A stretch of 6,701 nt of DNA from J088 sp003695505 [NCBI: Candidatus Dadabacteria bacterium]. GTDB taxonomy: Bacteria > J088. A program made the translations under genes and the position numbers. The DNA is taken from NCBI GenBank assembly GCA_003695505.1, contig RFIY01000258.1, forward strand, positions 1 through 6,701, in the 5' to 3' direction. The notes beneath the pieces were generated by a model. It saw only the letters and a program-made list of their open reading frames with translations. It was not told the origin of the DNA and searched no databases. This document shows positions 1-6,701 of the stretch, piece after piece (the first letter of the stretch is position 1; every line of letters starts with the position of its first letter).

Positions 1-29
1 GCGAGCAAGGGGTACATCGAGAAGAGGGA
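1..29. repeat. Terminal direct repeat, copy 1
   Basis: The first 29 bases are identical to the last 29 bases of the window (6673-6701). This copy forms most of the untranslated leader of the small gene at 38 and includes most of its ribosome binding site. Exact matching ends are the usual mark of a circular molecule assembled as a linear contig, in which case the unique length is 6672 bp. They could also be two genomic copies of a leader sequence belonging to related small genes. The identity is seen directly; its cause is inferred. Confidence 0.9.
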
Positions 30-37
30 GAAACGCA

Positions 38-346
38 ATGGGGATGCCCATGTCGCTGGAAGAAGACGTTCGCGAGCTCAAGGAACGCGTCGCCTACCTC
101 GATGGCTGGCGCGAGGGCGAGGCGAACCGTTACGCACGCCTCGAAGCAGATATGGCGCAGGTCAAGGAAGAACTGCACCGCCTTGGCGACAAGATCGCGT
201 CGCAGGATGAGCGGTTGAGCAGTCGCATCGACAGGCTCGACGAGCGCCTCGACGGCACGAATCAGCGCATCGACCGGATGATGTGGTTCATGCTGGCGAC
301 GCTGGGCGGCGTGCTGACCAATCTGGTGCTGACGGTGCTGAAGTAG
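38..346 (+). CDS. XhlA-like small coiled-coil protein with C-terminal membrane helix
   Basis: The product has 102 residues. Residues 6-80 are highly charged with heptad-like spacing and repeated elements such as RIDRLDERLDG and NQRIDRMM, which predicts a long coiled coil. Residues 81-100 are hydrophobic (MMWFMLATLGGVLTNLVLTV) and form a single membrane helix ending in Leu-Lys. This layout, soluble coiled coil then one C-terminal helix, matches the XhlA (hemolysin/holin-associated) type of small protein, known from phage-derived lysis cassettes but also found widely as stand-alone chromosomal genes. No holin or endolysin lies beside it here, so a lysis role is not supported. ATG 38 is chosen because AGGGAG at 25-30 lies seven bases upstream; ATG 44 and ATG 50 are in-frame alternatives with poorer spacing. 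It is separated from the next gene by over 600 bases, so it is probably transcribed independently. Family assignment rests on architecture only. Confidence 0.7.
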   Translation: MGMPMSLEEDVRELKERVAYLDGWREGEANRYARLEADMAQVKEELHRLGDKIASQDERLSSRIDRLDERLDGTNQRIDRMMWFMLATLGGVLTNLVLTVLK

Positions 347-478
347 GCCGGCGCGTGCTGTCGGCAATCGGATCCGGCGTCAGGCAGCAAAAGATACGGC
401 CGCCCTTTGTTTGACTACGATCCGCGTCCAACCGTGTCGTTCGGTGTCGATGATCGGGATTTGCTGCGGACCATCGTC

Positions 479-498
479 GGCCTGATCCGGAGCAGGCC
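479..498. repeat. Near-perfect 20-bp inverted repeat
   Basis: GGCCTGATCCGGAGCAGGCC has perfect 6-bp arms (GGCCTG/CAGGCC) and a self-complementary centre (TCCGGA), so 18 of 20 positions pair; only the A/G positions between arm and centre do not. It can form a hairpin in RNA or be a dimer-binding operator. No T-run follows, so it is not a standard rho-independent terminator. It lies about 130 bases after the stop of the first gene. Confidence 0.55.
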
Positions 499-874
499 AT
501 CGGCGATGTAAGCGCGCCTCGCTCAACTCGCGACACCACGGATTTCGTGTAGCAGTGCATCGACAGTCAAAGGCAGGCCCCCGTCGACATCGAGCCTCAG
601 GCTCCCGGCCTTTCGAACGCGCACATGTTTACTGCGCCGGCTCATCCATCGTGCCCCGCTGTGGCGGCGAAACCGGTGCAACGTCGGGTATCTGCTCAGC
701 TTGGTGCATATGGATAGCGGTATTGGATTGATCCACCTGAATGGTGGGCGCTCCTGCGTGAACGAGACGGCCACCTCCGTCTTCGGGATCGATTTCGAAC
801 TTTCCAGTGGGGGGCACATCTCGGAGAATCGCAGGACGCAGTTGTTTCCAGAGTCAGGTCGGTGCTATCTCTCC

Positions 875-948: not shown

Positions 949-977
949 TTGACAATGATGCGGCAATCCGCTAGAAG
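949..977 (+). promoter_or_regulatory. Sigma-70-type promoter of the large-protein operon
   Basis: A consensus -35 box TTGACA (949-954) is followed after exactly 17 bases by TAGAAG (972-977), which matches four of six bases of TATAAT, including the first two. The predicted transcription start is near 984. This leaves about 30 bases of leader before the GTG at 1016 but only about 4 bases before the ATG at 988, which matters for the choice of start of the downstream gene. No other promoter is obvious between here and 6614, so it probably drives the large gene and both lipoprotein genes together. Confidence 0.7.
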
Positions 978-987
978 TTCATGTTGA

Positions 988-3900
988 ATGTTACTGTTTC
1001 GCAAAGGGGAGTCCAGTGCGCAGTTCTTCCGTTCTTCCGTTCTTCCGTTCTTCATCATAGCGGGTTTGTCTCACGTCGCGACACCAGCAGCAGCGCGTGC
1101 CGATGACGATGCGTTGACGGTCACGGCGGTGACCTGGTCGGGTTCGGTGCTGTCGCCAAACGACGACGGCATCCAGGACAGTATGACGATCCAGGCGTGG
1201 CTGGTCATCGACCATGATCACGGGATCAAGAAGTACGTCCGTGACCGCGCCCTCGGAAAATCATTCAAGAAGACGTTCGATGTCGAGGCCCGAATCTCGC
1301 TGGTTGGCGCGAGCGCCGCGACGGATCTGACCTGGATCGAGCCGCTGGCGCCCAGCGTTTGCGTGACCCGGCTTGGGCGGGTAATGTCGGTTGCGGAATG
1401 GGCGCTGCGCAAGGGCAGCGACGATGAGCATCGCGACAAGAAAGGCGACAAACCCGGCAAGCACGACGATGACAGCGACGATGAGCACAAGAACCCCGAG
1501 TGTGACCTGTTCTTGCAACAAGTGAGCTACGAGCTCGCGGGTACATCCGTGGCGCTGCCGGCCGGCCCGTACAGCGCGGATTTACGGCTGCAATTGATCG
1601 AAACGGAGCACGACGATTGCGACGACGATGAATCGCACGGTGCGGAACAGGAACACTGCGAGCTGGAACGGGAGGTCGTCGGCGGCGAAACACTGCGGCA
1701 CGATCTGTGGGTGACGTGGCCGTTTGAACCGACGAACTTCGTCAACGACACCGTGTTTTATTTCGGTGCCAATGTGACCGACGGCGATGAACAGCGGGGC
1801 CTGATCGGGATACCGCTTCTGCCGGCGCTCGAGATCTCGGCGGTCACGATCCCTGTGCCGGTCCAGGTGGGGTTTGCGGTTTCGACAACGGATCCACGGA
1901 TCGCACTATTGCCAGACGCCGTGACCAGCTTCACGACGCTCGTGACCAGCAGCGCCAACGGGTGGATTTATGGCCTGCCGCTGGCCACGACGGCGCCGCC
2001 GTTGACGGTCACGGATGCGGCGCAATTTGCAGTGACGGTCTATGTTGGTCTGGGCGCCGCTACCGAAAGCCTCAAAGGCAAATTCATTGCTTGGTGGGAT
2101 GCTTCACGGGGGCAATGGGTCACGGTTGATCAGGGGGTGCTAGATGCAGTCCGGTTTGAGCAGCGCCTGGAGGCCGCCCGTCGTCCGGATGGTCGCATCG
2201 ATCCATTTGTTCTGCCACTCAAGGGACAGACAGTCACCCATGAAGTCGATGTGTCGTGGGCGTTTGGTGGTGCGGCGCCGGCAACAGACAACCCGTTCGA
2301 AGTCTACGATAGTGCGGACATTTTTGGAGCACCTTTGACTGCAGATCTCTCGTATTTTGCCGGGGAAACGTTTGAGACGGATGTGACGGAAGGCGAACTG
2401 GTCGATCCATCGTACACGGTGCAGGGTTTCATCAGTTATTTCGATACGCTCCTGCAGAAGAACCGGCCCCTTGACGGCGCGACTGTTCAGGTGTGGGACA
2501 AAGATGCTGTCAAGGATGACCCTGTGTGCTCAGCGGTCACATTGGCGAATGGCTTTTTCCGCTGTACGGGTAATGCAAGCGACTTTGGCTGGTTCGGCCT
2601 GGGATCTACACGCGCCGACCTTTACATCGTGGCGCGAACACGCAACAAGAGCCTGGCTGCGGTTCACATGCCGCCTGATTTCTCGTTTTCTGGTCTGTTC
2701 AGTCTGGACGACCACGGTTTGCTACGCTTGCTCGGAGTCATCGGTAAGACGTTGAAAACATGTTTGTCCAAAGATGCTGGGCAGAAATGCCTGTTGACGA
2801 TCCTGAATTCGCGGCCCGCCTATGCTGGCAAATCAAAGATCCTGGACAACGTGCCGGGTGGGACCGTGTGGATAAACATCACGATGCCGGAAACGGAAAG
2901 TCAATATCACACCTGGTTCAATCGTGCAGCCAAAGTGATTCGGCGCGTCTCAAGCGCGGCCTGGCGGGTCCGTGTTCATTACGAGGATGCGAACGGGAAC
3001 GAGCGAGAGGCAACGCTGGCGCAGCGATTCCAGGCAAATCCACTGGTCATCGGAAATTTCCCGGCCTTGAGTTCGGAATTTTCGTACCTGCATCTGGACT
3101 ATCCATTCTGCAATCTGGCGGAATCTAAGGCAGTGACACAAAATGGGATCGGGTTGCGTTATTGTCCCAATGTTGGTGTTCGCGATTACAAAACGGATTA
3201 TCCTAATCTGTTGGTAGCTACCGAGACTATCCGACGAGCCAATGACCTTTTGAGCTTCGAAACCGCAGTTGGAAACTATGTACGGCTGGTGATACAGCAG
3301 TACACAAAAACTGGAGAGTCCAGCGAGGTTGTTTCCGAGGGTAGGGACAATAATGCAATTGCGGCGTTCTTCACACCCGGTCCCGGCATGGACAGCTATG
3401 CTGCCTTCAATTACGGAATCGGCATGCACTTTGCGAACGAAACCCTCTATCGCAGCGCTGCGTACCCCTACTGTGTCGCGTGGGATTCGGGTGACGATAA
3501 TGTCCTTTTTCGGTTGATCGGACGTCCGCCATTCGTACTGCCTGTCTATTTCTGCAGCCTGCTCGAGGCGGGGCCACGCTACCGCACCGGCGGTGAAAGG
3601 GATGCACTGGCCGTCAGTGCGTACCTGTGGGACCTGGTTGACTACTGCAATAACGACAACTCCGGCAATGGGCGGTGCGATGAGCGGGCCAGCTTTAGCA
3701 GCGAAGATGGGGTCCAGGCTGCCGACCACACGTCGCGGTTTTCGATTGCCGACTATGTGCGAGCCCTGGATGAGGGCCGGCGGTCGGGTTTGAAGATCGC
3801 GGATTTCGTCCATTACCTGCGGGACGATGGCTACTCGGTGAGTTGTCAGCAATTCAACGATGAGGTCGTGACCGCTGCTCGACTGAATGGCATCGGCACC

Positions 3901-4077
3901 GTTGCGCGTCGCAACTGTACGCCACCCGGTGGCGGGGGCGGCGGTGGCGGTGGCAGCGGAGGCGGCTGTTCCGTTGCAACCGCACCCGACGAAGCCAACG
4001 GCTTTGTATGCTGGATGGCGTTGCTCGTTTTTTGGCGAACCGTGGGGCGCGGACGATGTCGCTCGCGTCGTCCCTGA
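988..4077 (+). CDS. Large secreted cysteine-containing multidomain protein with C-terminal sorting-type tail
   Basis: The ORF encodes 1029 residues. From ATG 988 it has an N-terminal signal peptide with a hydrophobic core at residues 18-27 (VLPFFIIAGL) and likely cleavage after ARA at 36-38. Next is LSPNDDGIQD (55-64), resembling the SPNGDGxxD motif of Ig-like modules in secreted proteins. Two Asp/Glu/His/Lys-rich tracts follow (142-172 and 204-232), each with Cys. Residues about 492-555 (DGATVQVWDKD, then a GFFRC strand) resemble a transthyretin or carboxypeptidase-regulatory fold. The 880-930 region has an LWDLVD motif seen near the end of some secreted metallopeptidase-like proteins, but no HExxH is present, so catalysis is not supported. 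The C-terminus has nine Gly, Ser, three Gly, Cys994, a short hydrophobic stretch (1005-1016) and an Arg-rich end, like exosortase/rhombosortase-class or JDVT-type tails. The start is uncertain: an out-of-frame GTG at 1016 has the better ribosome site (see the 8-bp repeat). The 3' end overlaps the next gene by 22 bases. Confidence 0.85.
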   Translation: MLLFRKGESSAQFFRSSVLPFFIIAGLSHVATPAAARADDDALTVTAVTWSGSVLSPNDDGIQDSMTIQAWLVIDHDHGIKKYVRDRALGKSFKKTFDVEARISLVGASAATDLTWIEPLAPSVCVTRLGRVMSVAEWALRKGSDDEHRDKKGDKPGKHDDDSDDEHKNPECDLFLQQVSYELAGTSVALPAGPYSADLRLQLIETEHDDCDDDESHGAEQEHCELEREVVGGETLRHDLWVTWPFEPTNFVNDTVFYFGANVTDGDEQRGLIGIPLLPALEISAVTIPVPVQVGFAVSTTDPRIALLPDAVTSFTTLVTSSANGWIYGLPLATTAPPLTVTDAAQFAVTVYVGLGAATESLKGKFIAWWDASRGQWVTVDQGVLDAVRFEQRLEAARRPDGRIDPFVLPLKGQTVTHEVDVSWAFGGAAPATDNPFEVYDSADIFGAPLTADLSYFAGETFETDVTEGELVDPSYTVQGFISYFDTLLQKNRPLDGATVQVWDKDAVKDDPVCSAVTLANGFFRCTGNASDFGWFGLGSTRADLYIVARTRNKSLAAVHMPPDFSFSGLFSLDDHGLLRLLGVIGKTLKTCLSKDAGQKCLLTILNSRPAYAGKSKILDNVPGGTVWINITMPETESQYHTWFNRAAKVIRRVSSAAWRVRVHYEDANGNEREATLAQRFQANPLVIGNFPALSSEFSYLHLDYPFCNLAESKAVTQNGIGLRYCPNVGVRDYKTDYPNLLVATETIRRANDLLSFETAVGNYVRLVIQQYTKTGESSEVVSEGRDNNAIAAFFTPGPGMDSYAAFNYGIGMHFANETLYRSAAYPYCVAWDSGDDNVLFRLIGRPPFVLPVYFCSLLEAGPRYRTGGERDALAVSAYLWDLVDYCNNDNSGNGRCDERASFSSEDGVQAADHTSRFSIADYVRALDEGRRSGLKIADFVHYLRDDGYSVSCQQFNDEVVTAARLNGIGTVARRNCTPPGGGGGGGGGSGGGCSVATAPDEANGFVCWMALLVFWRTVGRGRCRSRRP
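1003..1018 (+). promoter_or_regulatory. Strong ribosome binding site and GTG start, out of frame in this allele
   Basis: AAAGGGGAG (1003-1011) is the strongest Shine-Dalgarno-like sequence near the 5' end of the large gene, and GTG 1016-1018 follows at good spacing. Translation from this GTG in the present sequence ends at TAG 1058-1060 after 14 codons. By contrast ATG 988, which is in frame with the long ORF, has only AGAAG (973-977) upstream. That motif overlaps the predicted -10 box, so it would not be in the transcript. The site therefore looks like the intended start, separated from its reading frame by the adjacent 8-base repeat array. Confidence 0.55.
1023..1053 (+). repeat. 8-bp tandem repeat in signal-peptide codons (candidate phase-variation tract)
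   Basis: The unit GTTCTTCC occurs three times perfectly (1023-1046), followed by seven of eight bases of a fourth copy (1047-1053). Eight is not a multiple of three, so gain or loss of one unit shifts the reading frame. With one unit removed, GTG 1016 reads MRSSSVLPFFIIAGLSHVAT and on into the long ORF, a compact Sec signal peptide. With the copies present here, only the ATG at 988 is in frame. Slipped-strand mispairing at such 5' tracts is an established switch for bacterial surface proteins; that it operates here is inference. Confidence 0.7.
4021..4037 (+). repeat. Diverged repeat, copy 1: codons of the ALLxxWR tail motif
   Basis: TTGCTCGTTTTTTGGCG matches 15 of 17 bases of 5275-5291, in the same reading frame, and lies 18 bases before the start of the first lipoprotein gene; the second copy lies 9 bases before the start of the second one. 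Both encode a membrane tail motif (ALLVFWR here, ALLILWR there). This suggests that the duplicated unit that gave rise to the two lipoprotein genes included the 3' end of the preceding gene. Confidence 0.5.
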
Positions 4078-5207
4078 GGCGGGTCATCGGGCTGGGATGC
4101 TGCTGGCTGGCGATCGGGGCGTGCGGCCTGATCGAGAGGGATACCGTTGATGACAAGGTATTCCGTGACCTTGTGGCGTTCCATGTCGGCCGAATCATCT
4201 GTGCGCTCGCAAATGATGGTTTGTACTGCACGACCGACATGCGACGCCCGGCCAGGAGCCTGCGCCGCATCGATAGTCCGGTGTATCGTGGATTGTTGTC
4301 TGACGCGACAGACATAGAGCTTATCGGGCTGATTGATCTTACACCTACGGGTGCCGCAGTCCTCGCGGTGCGTGGTTACGGTAACGAAGGGTGGTTGATT
4401 TATCTGCCGTTGTTTGCGCCGGTTGGTGCGGGCGATTTGTACGGCGCGATCCCACTCCCCGGTCCGGTGACGCGCCTGATGCGGAGCTATAGTGCAGATG
4501 CGTTCTGTTGGCAGCGCGGTCCTGGCCGCCCGTGGTGCGCAGTTCGTCCGGGGATTGAGGACCTCGAAACGAGAGTGCTTGGCGTGGAAAGCGTTTCCGC
4601 GCCTGTGGCAGTTCCCGATCAACAGTTCGATGCTCCCGTTGTCCACGAACCCACAGAGTGGGGATTCCCGGTAACCTGGGCGGCGGGAGCCGTGGACGTG
4701 CAGCCGCCATGTGCGCTTTTCGCCGATGGGACGGTGAAGTGCTGGACCTCGGGGACGATCGTACAATTGCCGGTAACGGATGTTACCGGTATCGTATCGA
4801 AGTATGATGGGGAAAACTCATTCAATGGAAGTTTTGTGACTGCCGCTGGCAGGGTCGCGTATGTTGGTACGGTGCCGACTGTGATTGCGCCCTGGGCGGT
4901 CACGGACCTTTCCGCGCCCGTGACCGCACCCCGGTTTGTTGCGGGCATTACGGATGCGGTGGATCTGGAGCAATCTGCGGCTACCGCGTGCGTCGTCCAT
5001 GCGAGCGGCGATGTTTCGTGCTGGGGCGTCATGGATGGTGAGTTTCTCGAGCCAGGGGAATTCGTCACTGCGCCGGTGCGACTGGATGACGTCAAGGATG
5101 CGGTACAGGTCGTGTTGCCATATCAAACGGGAAATGCTTCGGATCTTTGTTGGCTTCGCCGCGACGGGAAGGTGCGCTGTCGGGAGAAGGAGCTTGGGGA
5201 CTGGTAG
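4056..5207 (+). CDS. RCC1-like beta-propeller lipoprotein, first paralogue
   Basis: The 383-residue product has a lipoprotein signal peptide: R8 R9, a hydrophobic core at 10-20 and lipobox I-G-A-C23 with Gly at +2, which predicts transport to the outer membrane. The mature part contains repeated hairpins of the form C-x9-C around a central Gly: 151/161, 219/229 (CALFADGTVKC), 312/322 (CVVHASGDVSCWG) and 365/375, plus a C-x8-C version at 49/58. A sixth copy at 260-270 (FVTAAGRVAYV) keeps the pattern but has lost both Cys. Such CxLxxDGxVxCWG strands are typical of RCC1/alpha-tubulin-suppressor-like propellers in bacterial exported proteins, usually with about seven blades; the wide gap between the first two pairs could hold one without Cys. 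ATG 4056 is preferred over the in-frame ATG 4008 because it gives the proper signal peptide and has GTGGGG at 4042-4047. It starts inside the previous gene, suggesting coupling. The ligand is unknown. Confidence 0.8.
   Translation: MSLASSLRRVIGLGCCWLAIGACGLIERDTVDDKVFRDLVAFHVGRIICALANDGLYCTTDMRRPARSLRRIDSPVYRGLLSDATDIELIGLIDLTPTGAAVLAVRGYGNEGWLIYLPLFAPVGAGDLYGAIPLPGPVTRLMRSYSADAFCWQRGPGRPWCAVRPGIEDLETRVLGVESVSAPVAVPDQQFDAPVVHEPTEWGFPVTWAAGAVDVQPPCALFADGTVKCWTSGTIVQLPVTDVTGIVSKYDGENSFNGSFVTAAGRVAYVGTVPTVIAPWAVTDLSAPVTAPRFVAGITDAVDLEQSAATACVVHASGDVSCWGVMDGEFLEPGEFVTAPVRLDDVKDAVQVVLPYQTGNASDLCWLRRDGKVRCREKELGDW
4770..4789. repeat. Perfect 8-bp inverted repeat inside the first lipoprotein gene
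   Basis: CCGGTAACGGATGTTACCGG has 8-bp perfect arms around a 4-base loop (GGAT), a potential stable RNA hairpin within the codons for PVTDVTG. The left arm (TTGCCGGTAAC) recurs in the second lipoprotein gene at the matching LPVTD codons, but its right arm is not conserved there. This argues for chance from repeated Val-Thr-Asp codons rather than a conserved RNA structure. Confidence 0.5.
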
Positions 5208-5208
5208 A

Positions 5209-5313
5209 TTGAGCATTCGTGCTATCAAGGTGGGGCCCCTTGCGGCGTGGATATCGTTGGGTCTGGGGTGGGCCTTGCTCATTTTGTGGCGTCGCCGGCG
5301 ATGCGTGTGGTAA
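5209..5313 (+). CDS. Possible 34-residue single-span membrane peptide (or tail remnant)
   Basis: Starting at TTG 5209, one base after the stop of the first lipoprotein gene, with GGGGA at 5196-5200 as a well-spaced ribosome site, a 34-codon frame runs to TAA 5311-5313 and overlaps the start of the second lipoprotein gene by 13 bases. It has one hydrophobic span (residues 10-27, including GWALLILW) followed directly by four Arg and a Cys. The end resembles the tail of the large exoprotein (ALLVFWR, then an Arg-rich stretch with Cys) in both protein and DNA, and both tails precede a lipoprotein gene. It may be a translated coupling peptide or the leftover 3' end of a duplicated large gene. The TTG start and small size keep confidence low. 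Confidence 0.35.
5275..5291 (+). repeat. Diverged repeat, copy 2: codons of the ALLxxWR tail motif
   Basis: TTGCTCATTTTGTGGCG matches 4021-4037 at 15 of 17 bases and in the same codon phase (ALLILWR). It lies 9 bases upstream of the ATG of the second lipoprotein gene. See the first copy for the interpretation. Confidence 0.5.
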
Positions 5314-6614
5314 GGCGGGCGCACGCGATCACGCTGATCGCGGCCGTATTTTGCTTTGCGAGCTGTTTTTCGGGAAACGAACCAGAAAAGTTCTGTGCCG
5401 GCGATACCGTGACTAAGGTCGCTCGACTGGTGCCGGTCCAACCGCTGTTGTGCGCCTCCACATCAGCAAACGGACTATCCTGCGAATCACCCTCAGGGTG
5501 TTTGCGCCCCATTGAAGCGTCGACGCAAGTTCACCAAATTACACCGATAATGGATGCTGCGGCGTTCGGCGATGGCTGGATGGGGCTGCCGTCCGGGACA
5601 GTCGCTGTCGGTCTCCAACTGCCCGACGAGTTGTTGTTGGCAGTATTGAAGTATTCTGCTTGCCAGAGCGTGGCCGCAGATTGCCCGCAGGTGCGCGTCG
5701 ACAGTGCAATGCGCATTACGGGAACCGTAAATACATTTCTTGGGCGGGACAGAAAGGATCCGTTGCTTTGCTGGAAAGATAATGACGGTGGAACATACTG
5801 CGTCCAGCCGGTGGCCCCGTTTGTTGATGGTGAGGGGCTCCCAGCCGTGGTATTTGGACTGCCTTCCACGGCAATCGTGCCGCCAGCCAACTATTGGTCG
5901 GCAACGGCGCCACCTTTCCATCTCTCCTGGGCCGACGGCGCGGTGTCGTTATCGTGGCCGTGCGCGGTGTTCGAGGACGGCAGCGTGCGCTGTCGCCCGT
6001 CCAACCTCAACGGTTATCTCGAGGTAACCTTGCCGGTAACCGATGCGGTGGAGGTCGTTGCACGCCAGACCGCCGGCTGGCTGCAGGATGCGCCCGCGCC
6101 GCGTGACGTGACCGAGGTGCCATTTGGTGGTTGCGTACGGACGCGAGATGGGCGAGTGGCCTGTTTCGGTCGCTATCTTGATCTGCCTCCCTCTCTTTCC
6201 TGGGCTGCGGGTGCGTTTGATCTGCCGATGACGGACCCGTTCTGGATGTCGGACGTGACCGATGCGACTGCGCTTCGTCGCGGCATTGGCCAGATGTGTG
6301 TCTTGCGGGCAACCGGTGGCGTGCAGTGCTGGGGGTGGCTGTCGGGGATAGATTCGCTCTATGTGACAGCGCCGACGGACTATGCGGGTGAGCTGACATT
6401 CTCGGCCGACCCGGTAGCCATCGCCGGGATCACGGATGTGACACAGATCGAACTGATGGCGTGGGGCAGTGATCGTTTCGCCCCGTGCTGGCTGAGGCGC
6501 GGCGGCTCCGTCGAATGCCGCAATCGCGTGGGCTGGGGCGATTGCGTGGTGCCCGGCGTGCCGCGAAGCGAGTGGTGGGAACACCTGGACAAGCGATGCA
6601 CGGGCGGGTTGTGA
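5301..6614 (+). CDS. RCC1-like beta-propeller lipoprotein, second paralogue
   Basis: The 437-residue product begins with basic residues (R2, R5, R6), a hydrophobic core (10-19) and the lipobox F-A-S-C22; Phe at the -3 position is unusual but tolerated. Six C-x9-C hairpins with a Gly near the centre are intact: 51/61, 157/167, 221/231 ([11 protein letters not shown]), 278/288, 333/343 ([13 protein letters not shown]) and 396/406. Extra Cys lie at 121/128, 67, 415 and 433. Spacing of 55-64 residues between later hairpins fits RCC1-like blades. It is a diverged paralogue of the preceding lipoprotein: shared elements include LPVTDA/V, ITDV/A before a hairpin, and PCWLRR or LCWLRR near the end, and both have W-A-x-GA before the third hairpin. 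It is longer by about 54 residues. ATG 5301 is chosen because it yields the signal peptide; the in-frame GTG 5247 would add 18 residues of non-signal-like sequence. No strong ribosome site is visible, consistent with coupled translation. Function is otherwise unknown. Confidence 0.8.
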
Positions 6615-6637
6615 CCGAGGCAAACGACCACGATAAC

Positions 6638-6675
6638 TTTCATCCGGCGGCGCCTCTCTGATACGCTGTACAGCG
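6638..6675 (+). promoter_or_regulatory. Weak promoter with 12-bp palindrome before the terminal repeat
   Basis: TGATACGCT (6659-6667) resembles an extended -10 element (TGnTAnnnT), with a poor -35 candidate TTTCAT at 6638-6643 and an 18-base spacer. Overlapping it is a perfect 12-bp palindrome, CGCTGTACAGCG (6664-6675), which would sit at the transcription start and could be a repressor site. Transcription would begin close to the first base of the terminal repeat. If the molecule is circular, this is the promoter of the XhlA-like gene; if linear, of whatever follows the window. Confidence 0.4.
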
Positions 6676-6701
6676 AGCAAGGGGTACATCGAGAAGAGGG
6701 A
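6673..6701. repeat. Terminal direct repeat, copy 2
   Basis: Identical over 29 bases to positions 1-29 and ending exactly at the window edge. It lies 58 bases after the stop of the second lipoprotein gene and just downstream of a promoter-like element and palindrome. No intrinsic terminator is seen between the lipoprotein stop and this repeat. Confidence 0.9.

What the first reader, a model, noticed from the sequence alone, without database searches (positions are those of the whole stretch)
949..1060. Candidate phase-variable switch: 8-bp tandem repeat puts the best start codon out of frame
The promoter (TTGACA-17-TAGAAG), strong Shine-Dalgarno (AAAGGGGAG, 1003-1011) and GTG (1016) are ideally arranged, yet GTG reads only 14 codons to TAG 1058. 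Between GTG and the hydrophobic core lie three perfect units plus seven bases of a fourth GTTCTTCC unit. Loss of one unit (or gain of two) joins GTG to the 1000-residue ORF and produces a clean signal peptide beginning MRSSSVLPFF. The in-frame ATG 988 would start about 4 bases from the predicted transcript start, and its product has an Arg (R15) just before and a Glu (E8) within the n-region. So this allele may be OFF or low-expressing, and the large surface protein may be switched by slippage.
Basis: partly seen in the sequence, partly recalled or inferred. Interest (0 to 1): 0.75.

Follow-up and report, generated by a model that had tools for sequence, protein, structure and literature searches.

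The report
Possible slippage switch on surface protein
A short DNA stutter lies inside the export signal of a large, probably surface-exposed protein in an undescribed bacterium and puts the gene's best start signal one step out of frame, so the protein may be switched between strong, weak and off by gain or loss of one repeat, although no relative or read was available to show that it really varies.

Summary
A perfect 8-bp array (3.875 copies, 1023-1053) separates a strong Shine-Dalgarno/GTG start (1016) from the frame of an intact 1029-codon ORF, which in this allele opens only at ATG 988 (TGA directly before it, almost no Shine-Dalgarno). The array is far beyond chance: in 43 readable sampled contigs (324 kb) no other perfect array with at least 2.75 copies exceeds 18 bp. 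Of 158 other ORFs, 0 match ORF1's start thresholds and 1 has as large a gap between its strongest out-of-frame and in-frame starts. Frame arithmetic gives three states: GTG in frame (2.875 or 5.875 units), ATG 988 in frame (3.875, 6.875), neither (4.875). The product is probably secreted and anchored by its C-terminus; its three-gene cluster lies between duplicated chromosomal pieces. No relative was found, so unit-number variation, the defining test, could not be made. The promoter is weaker than stated. Best reading: a low-copy slippage-prone locus of the Opa/lic2A kind, captured in its weak or off state. Main rivals: a fixed scar, or ATG 988 as the normal start. Real, moderately interesting, unproven.

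The parts
949..977 (+). promoter-like TTGACA-17-TAGAAG; perfect -35, poor -10
   Evidence: read; not accepted by the scan; 11 comparable TTGACA sites in the sampled contigs, all with T at -10 position 6, a letter that 82% of such hexamers have anyway
985..987 (+). in-frame TGA directly before ATG 988, so the long ORF cannot start further upstream
988..4077 (+). 1029-codon ORF1: signal peptide (by eye), secreted body, Gly-rich stretch and Cys/hydrophobic/basic tail
   Evidence: codon score +235 bits; +234 on readable contigs
988..990 (+). ATG, the in-frame start of this allele; almost no SD (-0.5 kcal/mol)
1003..1011 (+). strong Shine-Dalgarno AAAGGGGAG
   Evidence: -7.8 kcal/mol to the anti-SD tail, which is recalled
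1016..1060 (+). GTG start and its 14-codon frame ending at TAG 1058-1060; joins ORF1 if the array loses one or gains two units
1023..1053 (+). 8-bp tandem array GTTCTTCC, 3.875 copies, inside the signal-peptide coding region
3927..4074 (+). Gly-rich stretch, Cys (TGT 3967-3969), hydrophobic segment and Arg-rich end: probable C-terminal sorting signal
   Evidence: by eye; like layout in 3 other proteins of the genome; ORF1 itself does not match the curated models
4056..5207 (+). ORF2, lipoprotein by eye, RCC1-like match below cut-off; start chosen by its SD (-4.8)
5247..6614 (+). ORF3, lipoprotein by eye, RCC1-like match below cut-off (alternative start ATG 5301)
1..351 (+). coiled-coil gene (38-346), copy of the one at the start of contig C59 (pieces 91% and 93% identical)
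473..664 (.). decayed copy (pieces 73% and 66% identical) of the recQ 3' end found whole in C59: upstream boundary of the insert
6633..6701 (+). second copy (98.6%) of the end and downstream flank of the phosphoglycerate-mutase-like gene (named by eye) in C352: downstream boundary

Best explanation
ORF1 is a slippage-prone, translationally switched contingency locus for a large secreted surface protein. The 8-bp array lies in the signal-peptide coding region, downstream of two start codons in different frames. With 2.875 (or 5.875) units the strong SD/GTG 1016 reads into the ORF (high). With the 3.875 units seen here GTG stops after 14 codons and only the SD-poor ATG 988 reads through (low or off). 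With 4.875 units neither does (off). Replication slippage changes the unit number. Shown: sequence, frames, predicted start strengths, non-chance array. Inferred: that the number varies in cells, that GTG is the real start, and the expression levels.
For: Perfect non-triplet array at the 5' end of an intact ORF, its exact sequence found only here in the searchable genome and longer than any comparable array in 324 kb of readable sample or in 3 Mb of Markov sequence. SD -7.8 at GTG 1016 against -0.5 at ATG 988. Displaced-start control: 0 of 158 ORFs meet both of ORF1's thresholds (in-frame no better than -1, out-of-frame -7.8 or stronger) and 1 of 158 has as large a gap. GTG lies 38 nt after the putative -10; at 6 of 11 other TTGACA sites the first start with SD of -4 or better lies 36-77 nt after it, and 104 of 1000 random positions have such a start at 30-80 nt (that range was chosen after seeing the six). 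Start codons in different frames upstream of a repeat give graded phase variation (PMC4235727 passages); Opa switching uses CTCTT repeats in the leader-peptide region (PMC5354566 passages).
Against: No second allele seen; no relatives. Only 3.875 units, short against hypermutable tetranucleotide tracts. No like array in the 43 readable sampled contigs, nor at the 5' ends of the three proteins with like C-termini, so the genome shows no habit of this. The displaced-start control depends on the cut: 2 of 158 at in-frame above -2 with out-of-frame -7.8, 5 of 158 at above -2 with -6, and 11 of 158 have some out-of-frame start of -7.8. Poor -10.
Confidence: 0.45

Rival explanations
1. One-off fixed change: a single unit was duplicated (or lost) in the past, GTG 1016 was thrown out of frame, and the gene now runs from ATG 988 at reduced level. 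The array is a scar, not a switch.
For: Short array and no sign of other slippage loci in the readable sample; ORF intact and coding-like, so it is still translated in this allele or was until recently; 22 codons stay open by chance in 44% of random trials, so ATG 988 being open needs no selection.
Against: The copies are identical, which suggests recent turnover (inference), and the strong SD and GTG have not decayed.
Confidence: 0.25
2. ATG 988 is the normal start, as a near-leaderless message or by coupling to the short frame that ends in TGA 985-987. The SD and GTG 1016 are chance or make a 14-codon leader peptide, and the 8-bp array just encodes signal-peptide residues.
For: TGA abuts ATG, and short frames from TTG 949 and ATG 955 with an SD energy of -6.6 end there. 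16 of 158 ORFs lack an in-frame SD better than -1 and one TTGACA site lies 7 nt from an ATG without SD. An out-of-frame start of -7.8 or stronger near the start is found in 11 of 158 ORFs. The first 11 codons from ATG 988 score within the normal range (40 of 158 ORFs score as low or lower). A leader-peptide form of repeat switching exists in S. gallolyticus pil1 (PMC3894217 passages).
Against: Weak in-frame and strong out-of-frame start together are rare: 0 to 5 of 158 by the cut chosen among those at in-frame above -1 with -6 or stronger up to in-frame above -2 with -6. A perfect non-triplet array exactly between the two is left unexplained. No terminator-like hairpin from 347 to 1200.
Confidence: 0.23
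3. Assembly or consensus error in the unit number; the real allele has GTG in frame.
For: The genome is a fragmented draft (395 contigs, 84.5% complete) and the contig ends lie in repeats.
Against: A 31-bp array is shorter than usual short reads (general knowledge); the ORF downstream shows no other frame damage.
Confidence: 0.07

Closest known systems
Neisseria opa genes (CTCTT repeats in the leader-peptide region)
   Same: Pyrimidine-rich, non-triplet repeat inside the signal-peptide coding region of a surface protein; a change of unit number shifts the frame (PMC5354566 passages; CTCTT slippage also in PMC2911385 passages).
   Different: 8-bp unit, under 4 copies, GTG start, one such gene in the sample, no Opa-family match in Pfam, variation not shown.
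Haemophilus influenzae lic2A type (start codons in different frames upstream of a repeat)
   Same: More than one upstream start in different frames, so graded states are possible (PMC4235727 passages; PMC5084427 passages, speak of repeats shifting translation between alternative starts). The lic2A paper itself is not held.
   Different: Not an LPS gene, not tetranucleotide; low copy number.
H. influenzae biogroup aegyptius hmwA octanucleotide GCATCATC arrays
   Same: 8-bp unit at a surface-protein gene (PMC3309571 passages).
   Different: Those lie in the putative promoter region with 12-15 copies; here coding region, 3.9 copies.
S. gallolyticus pil1 leader-peptide switch
   Same: Short repeat-bearing frame upstream of a surface gene (PMC3894217 passages).
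   Different: No terminator-like hairpin found here, and the short frame overlaps the gene itself.
MYXO-CTERM / JDVT-CTERM sorted surface proteins
   Same: ORF1 ends in Gly-run, Cys, hydrophobic stretch, Arg-rich tail, like three other proteins of the genome; a CPBP protease related to MrtJ is present (66.4 bits, cut-off 75); tripartite signal as described in PMC11980579 (passages).
   Different: ORF1 itself is not matched by the curated models; 35 residues follow its Cys against 31 in the three siblings (counted).

Membership tests
Repeat-mediated translational phase variation (contingency locus) | Perfect tandem array of a non-triplet unit at the 5' end of a gene, beyond chance | tested here: met
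Repeat-mediated translational phase variation (contingency locus) | A change of unit number changes which start reads into the gene | tested here: met
   frame arithmetic
Repeat-mediated translational phase variation (contingency locus) | Unit number varies between cells or strains | not testable with these tools
   no reads; no relatives found
Repeat-mediated translational phase variation (contingency locus) | Tract long enough for high mutation rates | tested here: inconclusive
   3.875 units: short against the tetranucleotide classes in PMC4235727 (mutable 3-12 AGTC, hypermutable more than 10), while 3 or more copies of GACGA are listed there as hypermutable; no class given for 8-bp units (passages)
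Repeat-mediated translational phase variation (contingency locus) | Expression switches with unit number | not testable with these tools
   needs experiment
Neisseria Opa family | Opa-family protein | tested here: not met
   Pfam scan of ORF1 gave only TTR-52 at E 0.017, below its cut-off
Neisseria Opa family | Repeat in the signal-peptide coding region | tested here: met
   signal peptide judged by eye, no predictor run
MYXO-CTERM / JDVT-CTERM sorting | Match to the curated model | tested here: not met
   ORF1 no match. Siblings: JDVT-CTERM 20.3, 18.7 and 18.4 bits (cut-off 27); MYXO-CTERM 19.6 (cut-off 20) in one of three
MYXO-CTERM / JDVT-CTERM sorting | Cys signature, hydrophobic helix, Arg-rich tail | tested here: met
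   by eye on the translation

The most novel reading that the evidence does not exclude
A three-state (high, low, off) contingency locus built on an octanucleotide array in a signal peptide, switching an inserted surface protein with a myxosortase-type anchor, in a bacterium for which the genome searches listed no relative closer than the domain.
Probability: 0.28. Interest if true: 0.6.

Novelty: new member of a known kind. Interest (0 to 1): 0.44.

Why it matters
If true, it carries Opa/lic2A-style repeat switching to an undescribed lineage and to a surface protein with a C-terminal sorting tail; a search for papers with 'CTERM', 'phase variation' and 'tandem repeat' together gave none (open-licence PMC only). 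It would also be a caution for gene calling: the only in-frame start of the deposited allele may be the weak one. The claim is directly testable from existing raw reads.

Tried and rejected
Relatives of ORF1: pattern scans of genome contigs (20 stretches, none a relative) and viral contigs (none), tblastn on plasmids (none at E 0.01), own genome (itself only), 59 genomes with its own among them (itself plus one short match to the Gly-rich tail in G044), 386 genomes with its own among them, query without the tail (itself plus seven short matches, E 5.5e-5 to 0.009, three of them within residues 486-583, where Pfam also gives a sub-threshold transthyretin-like match). PDB sequences: weak matches only, ORF1 best E 0.005 and ORF3 best E 0.12; ORF2 was not searched there. 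Placing the organism: no 16S found; HemE at best 45% identical among the 132 other genomes, of 385, that matched at E 1e-60; HemH scan gave one Aquificaceae MAG at 46%; PDB searches with HemE and RecQ did not place it. Local RNA folding does not set the region apart (z 1.19, -0.27, -0.05). Programmed frameshifting was considered and dropped by eye only: I saw no classical slippery heptamer. No structure prediction was run, as no alignment could be made.

(1) That 10 of 11 TTGACA sites precede long frames says little: 819 of 1000 random positions do (736 before masked contigs were left out). (2) The missing -10 T counts less, as 82% of such hexamers have it. (3) Codons 988-1022 are not unusual for the start of an ORF (40 of 158 score as low or lower). 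The displaced-start control was 0 of 162; redone without masked contigs and with other cut-offs it is 0 to 5 of 158. For this I lowered the best explanation from 0.48 to 0.45 and raised the ATG 988 rival from 0.20 to 0.23.

Full report
Where it lies. The window is the whole of contig C330 in a fragmented draft genome (2.83 Mb, 395 contigs, 84.5% complete). Every genome listed as a relative shares only the domain with it (58 of 58 others listed, 233 of the 386 are not listed), and its HemE is at best 45% identical to theirs. The first 80 bases equal the end of C352 and the start of C59, and bases 6633-6701 match C352 13529-13597 at 98.6%. The coiled-coil gene at 38-346 has a copy at the start of C59, with matching pieces at 91% and 93%. 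Bases 473-664 are a decayed copy (pieces at 73% and 66%, E 5e-8 and 3e-4) of the 3' end of the recQ gene that is whole in C59. The simplest reading (inference; the contig order is not proven) is that ORF1-ORF3 were inserted between two copies of a duplicated chromosomal stretch. C352 and C59 carry ordinary chromosomal genes (hemE-, hemH-, recQ- and mrp-like by my reading; hemE and recQ backed by PDB matches). G+C is 58% in ORF1, 59% in the cluster, 62% in the sample.

The array. GTTCTTCC is repeated 3.875 times at 1023-1053 without a mismatch. A 23-base stretch of it has no match, with up to 3 mismatches, in 200 shuffles of the window, and its exact sequence occurs nowhere else in the searchable genome. 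In 3 Mb of Markov sequence there are 8 arrays of period 5-15 with at least 3 copies, and none reaches 24 bp. I fetched 56 of 395 contigs (360,015 positions); 13 came back masked, which leaves 43 contigs and 324,139 bases. In these the perfect arrays of period 5-30 with at least 2.75 copies are five, of 14 to 18 bp. Tandem Repeats Finder lists other arrays there, most of them imperfect or of about two copies, for example 21- and 33-bp units in the C59 coiled-coil gene and a 28-bp array of 2.3 perfect 12-bp copies.

The two starts. The 1029-codon frame is closed directly upstream by TGA 985-987, so it opens at ATG 988 or later. The hybridisation energy to the anti-SD tail is -0.5 kcal/mol at ATG 988 and -7.8 at GTG 1016. 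Of 102 long ORFs, 27% have a best start (over 300 nt) at least as strong as -7.8 and 98% at least -0.5; of 6000 random start codons, 2.4% and 77%. Over a fairer stretch, from the upstream stop to 60 nt past the first in-frame start, 26 of 158 ORFs reach -7.8 and 142 of 158 reach -0.5. In the same stretch, 16 of 158 have no in-frame start better than -1; none of these also has an out-of-frame start of -7.8, and 1 of 158 has a gap between the two as large as ORF1's. These cuts were taken from ORF1 itself. With looser ones the counts are 2 of 158 (in-frame above -2, out-of-frame -7.8) and 5 of 158 (above -2, -6); 11 of 158 have some out-of-frame start of -7.8. So the displaced strong start is rare, at the level of one to a few per cent, not unique.

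The states. Frame arithmetic: at 2.875 and 5.875 units GTG 1016 is in frame; at 0.875, 3.875 and 6.875 ATG 988 is in frame; at 1.875 and 4.875 neither. The present allele is the ATG 988 state. Both readings share the hydrophobic core and the AARA-DDD cleavage region (by eye). From GTG the signal peptide would be about 26 residues; from ATG 988 about 38, long for a bacterial signal peptide (general knowledge). The first 11 codons from ATG 988 are not unusual in codon use (40 of 158 ORFs score as low or lower), so codon use does not decide between the starts.

The promoter. TTGACA-17-TAGAAG is there, but the scan does not accept it, since it demands T at the last place of the -10. In the sampled contigs 11 of 95 TTGACA sites have a -10 of at least 4/6 at 16-18 bp. 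All 11 have that T, but so do 82% of all hexamers with at least 4/6. Ten of 11 lie within 260 nt upstream of a start of a frame of at least 90 codons, but so do 819 of 1000 random positions. More telling, at 6 of 11 the first start with SD of -4 or better lies at 36, 38, 38, 45, 74 or 77 nt, against 104 of 1000 random positions with such a start at 30-80 nt (range set after seeing the six). GTG 1016 lies at 38 nt. One site (L100) has an ATG without SD at 7 nt, the nearest parallel to ATG 988 at 10 nt. A near-leaderless start is therefore not excluded.

The product. ORF1 is coding-like (+235 bits of codon score; +234) and has no match above cut-off in Pfam or NCBIfam. It ends in a Gly-run, Cys, hydrophobic stretch and Arg-rich tail. 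A degenerate pattern for four Gly codons plus Cys, which ORF1 itself does not meet, found three places in the genome, and all three are ends of long ORFs with a like layout. These match the JDVT-CTERM model at 18-20 bits (cut-off 27) and one matches MYXO-CTERM at 19.6 (cut-off 20). The genome has one CPBP protease at 66.4 bits to the MrtJ model (cut-off 75) with EExxxR and HxxxN motifs; the same family rings in 11 of 14 control genomes, none over the cut-off, so this is weak support. ORF1 does not match the models, so its membership is by architecture only. None of the three siblings has a perfect array (period 5-15, at least 2.5 copies) near its 5' end; the only such array in their contigs is 15 bp of a 6-bp unit in C125, inside the gene.

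What is known. Frame-shifting CTCTT repeats in the leader region of opa (PMC5354566, passages), start codons in different frames upstream of a repeat giving graded expression (PMC4235727, passages), repeats that shift translation between alternative starts in meningococci (PMC5084427, passages), octanucleotide arrays at hmwA (PMC3309571, passages) and a repeat-bearing leader peptide at pil1 (PMC3894217, passages) are all in print. The mechanism proposed here is therefore a member of a known kind. A review's classes put 3-12 copies of AGTC as mutable and more than 10 as hypermutable, but also 3 or more copies of GACGA as hypermutable (PMC4235727); 3.875 copies of an 8-bp unit is modest and not classed there.

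Verdict. The sequence facts are right and not chance, and the best start is displaced from its gene by exactly the kind of element that can move it back. Whether it moves is untested: there were no relatives, reads or metagenome scans. I put 0.45 on a real slippage switch, 0.25 on a fixed scar, 0.23 on ATG 988 as the normal start, 0.07 on an error.

Noticed in passing
window 1-351, 473-664, 6633-6701; L009 1-1080; L025 13529-13648: The three-gene cluster is bounded by copies of a chromosomal stretch (coiled-coil gene, decayed recQ 3' end, end of a phosphoglycerate-mutase-like gene), as if inserted in a duplication.
   Followed up: partly
L009 38-583: The C59 copy of the coiled-coil gene carries extra 21- and 33-bp in-frame repeats (181 codons against 102 in the window): the same gene in two repeat lengths.
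   Followed up: no
window 4056-5207 and 5247-6614: ORF2 and ORF3 look like lipoproteins (by eye) with RCC1-type matches below cut-off; ORF3 has no PDB sequence match better than E 0.12, ORF2 was not searched there. They may act with ORF1.
   Followed up: partly
C125 (L088), C315 (L089), C389 (L090), C334 (L111): Three more proteins with Gly-run/Cys/helix/Arg C-termini (one with an M6 metalloprotease domain, one with an OmpL47-type domain) and one MrtJ-like CPBP protease below cut-off: a possible myxosortase-like system outside the curated models.
   Followed up: partly
L100 position 405 (contig C190): TTGACA-17-TAAACT lies 7 nt before an ATG that opens 301 codons and has no SD: possible leaderless gene.
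   Followed up: no
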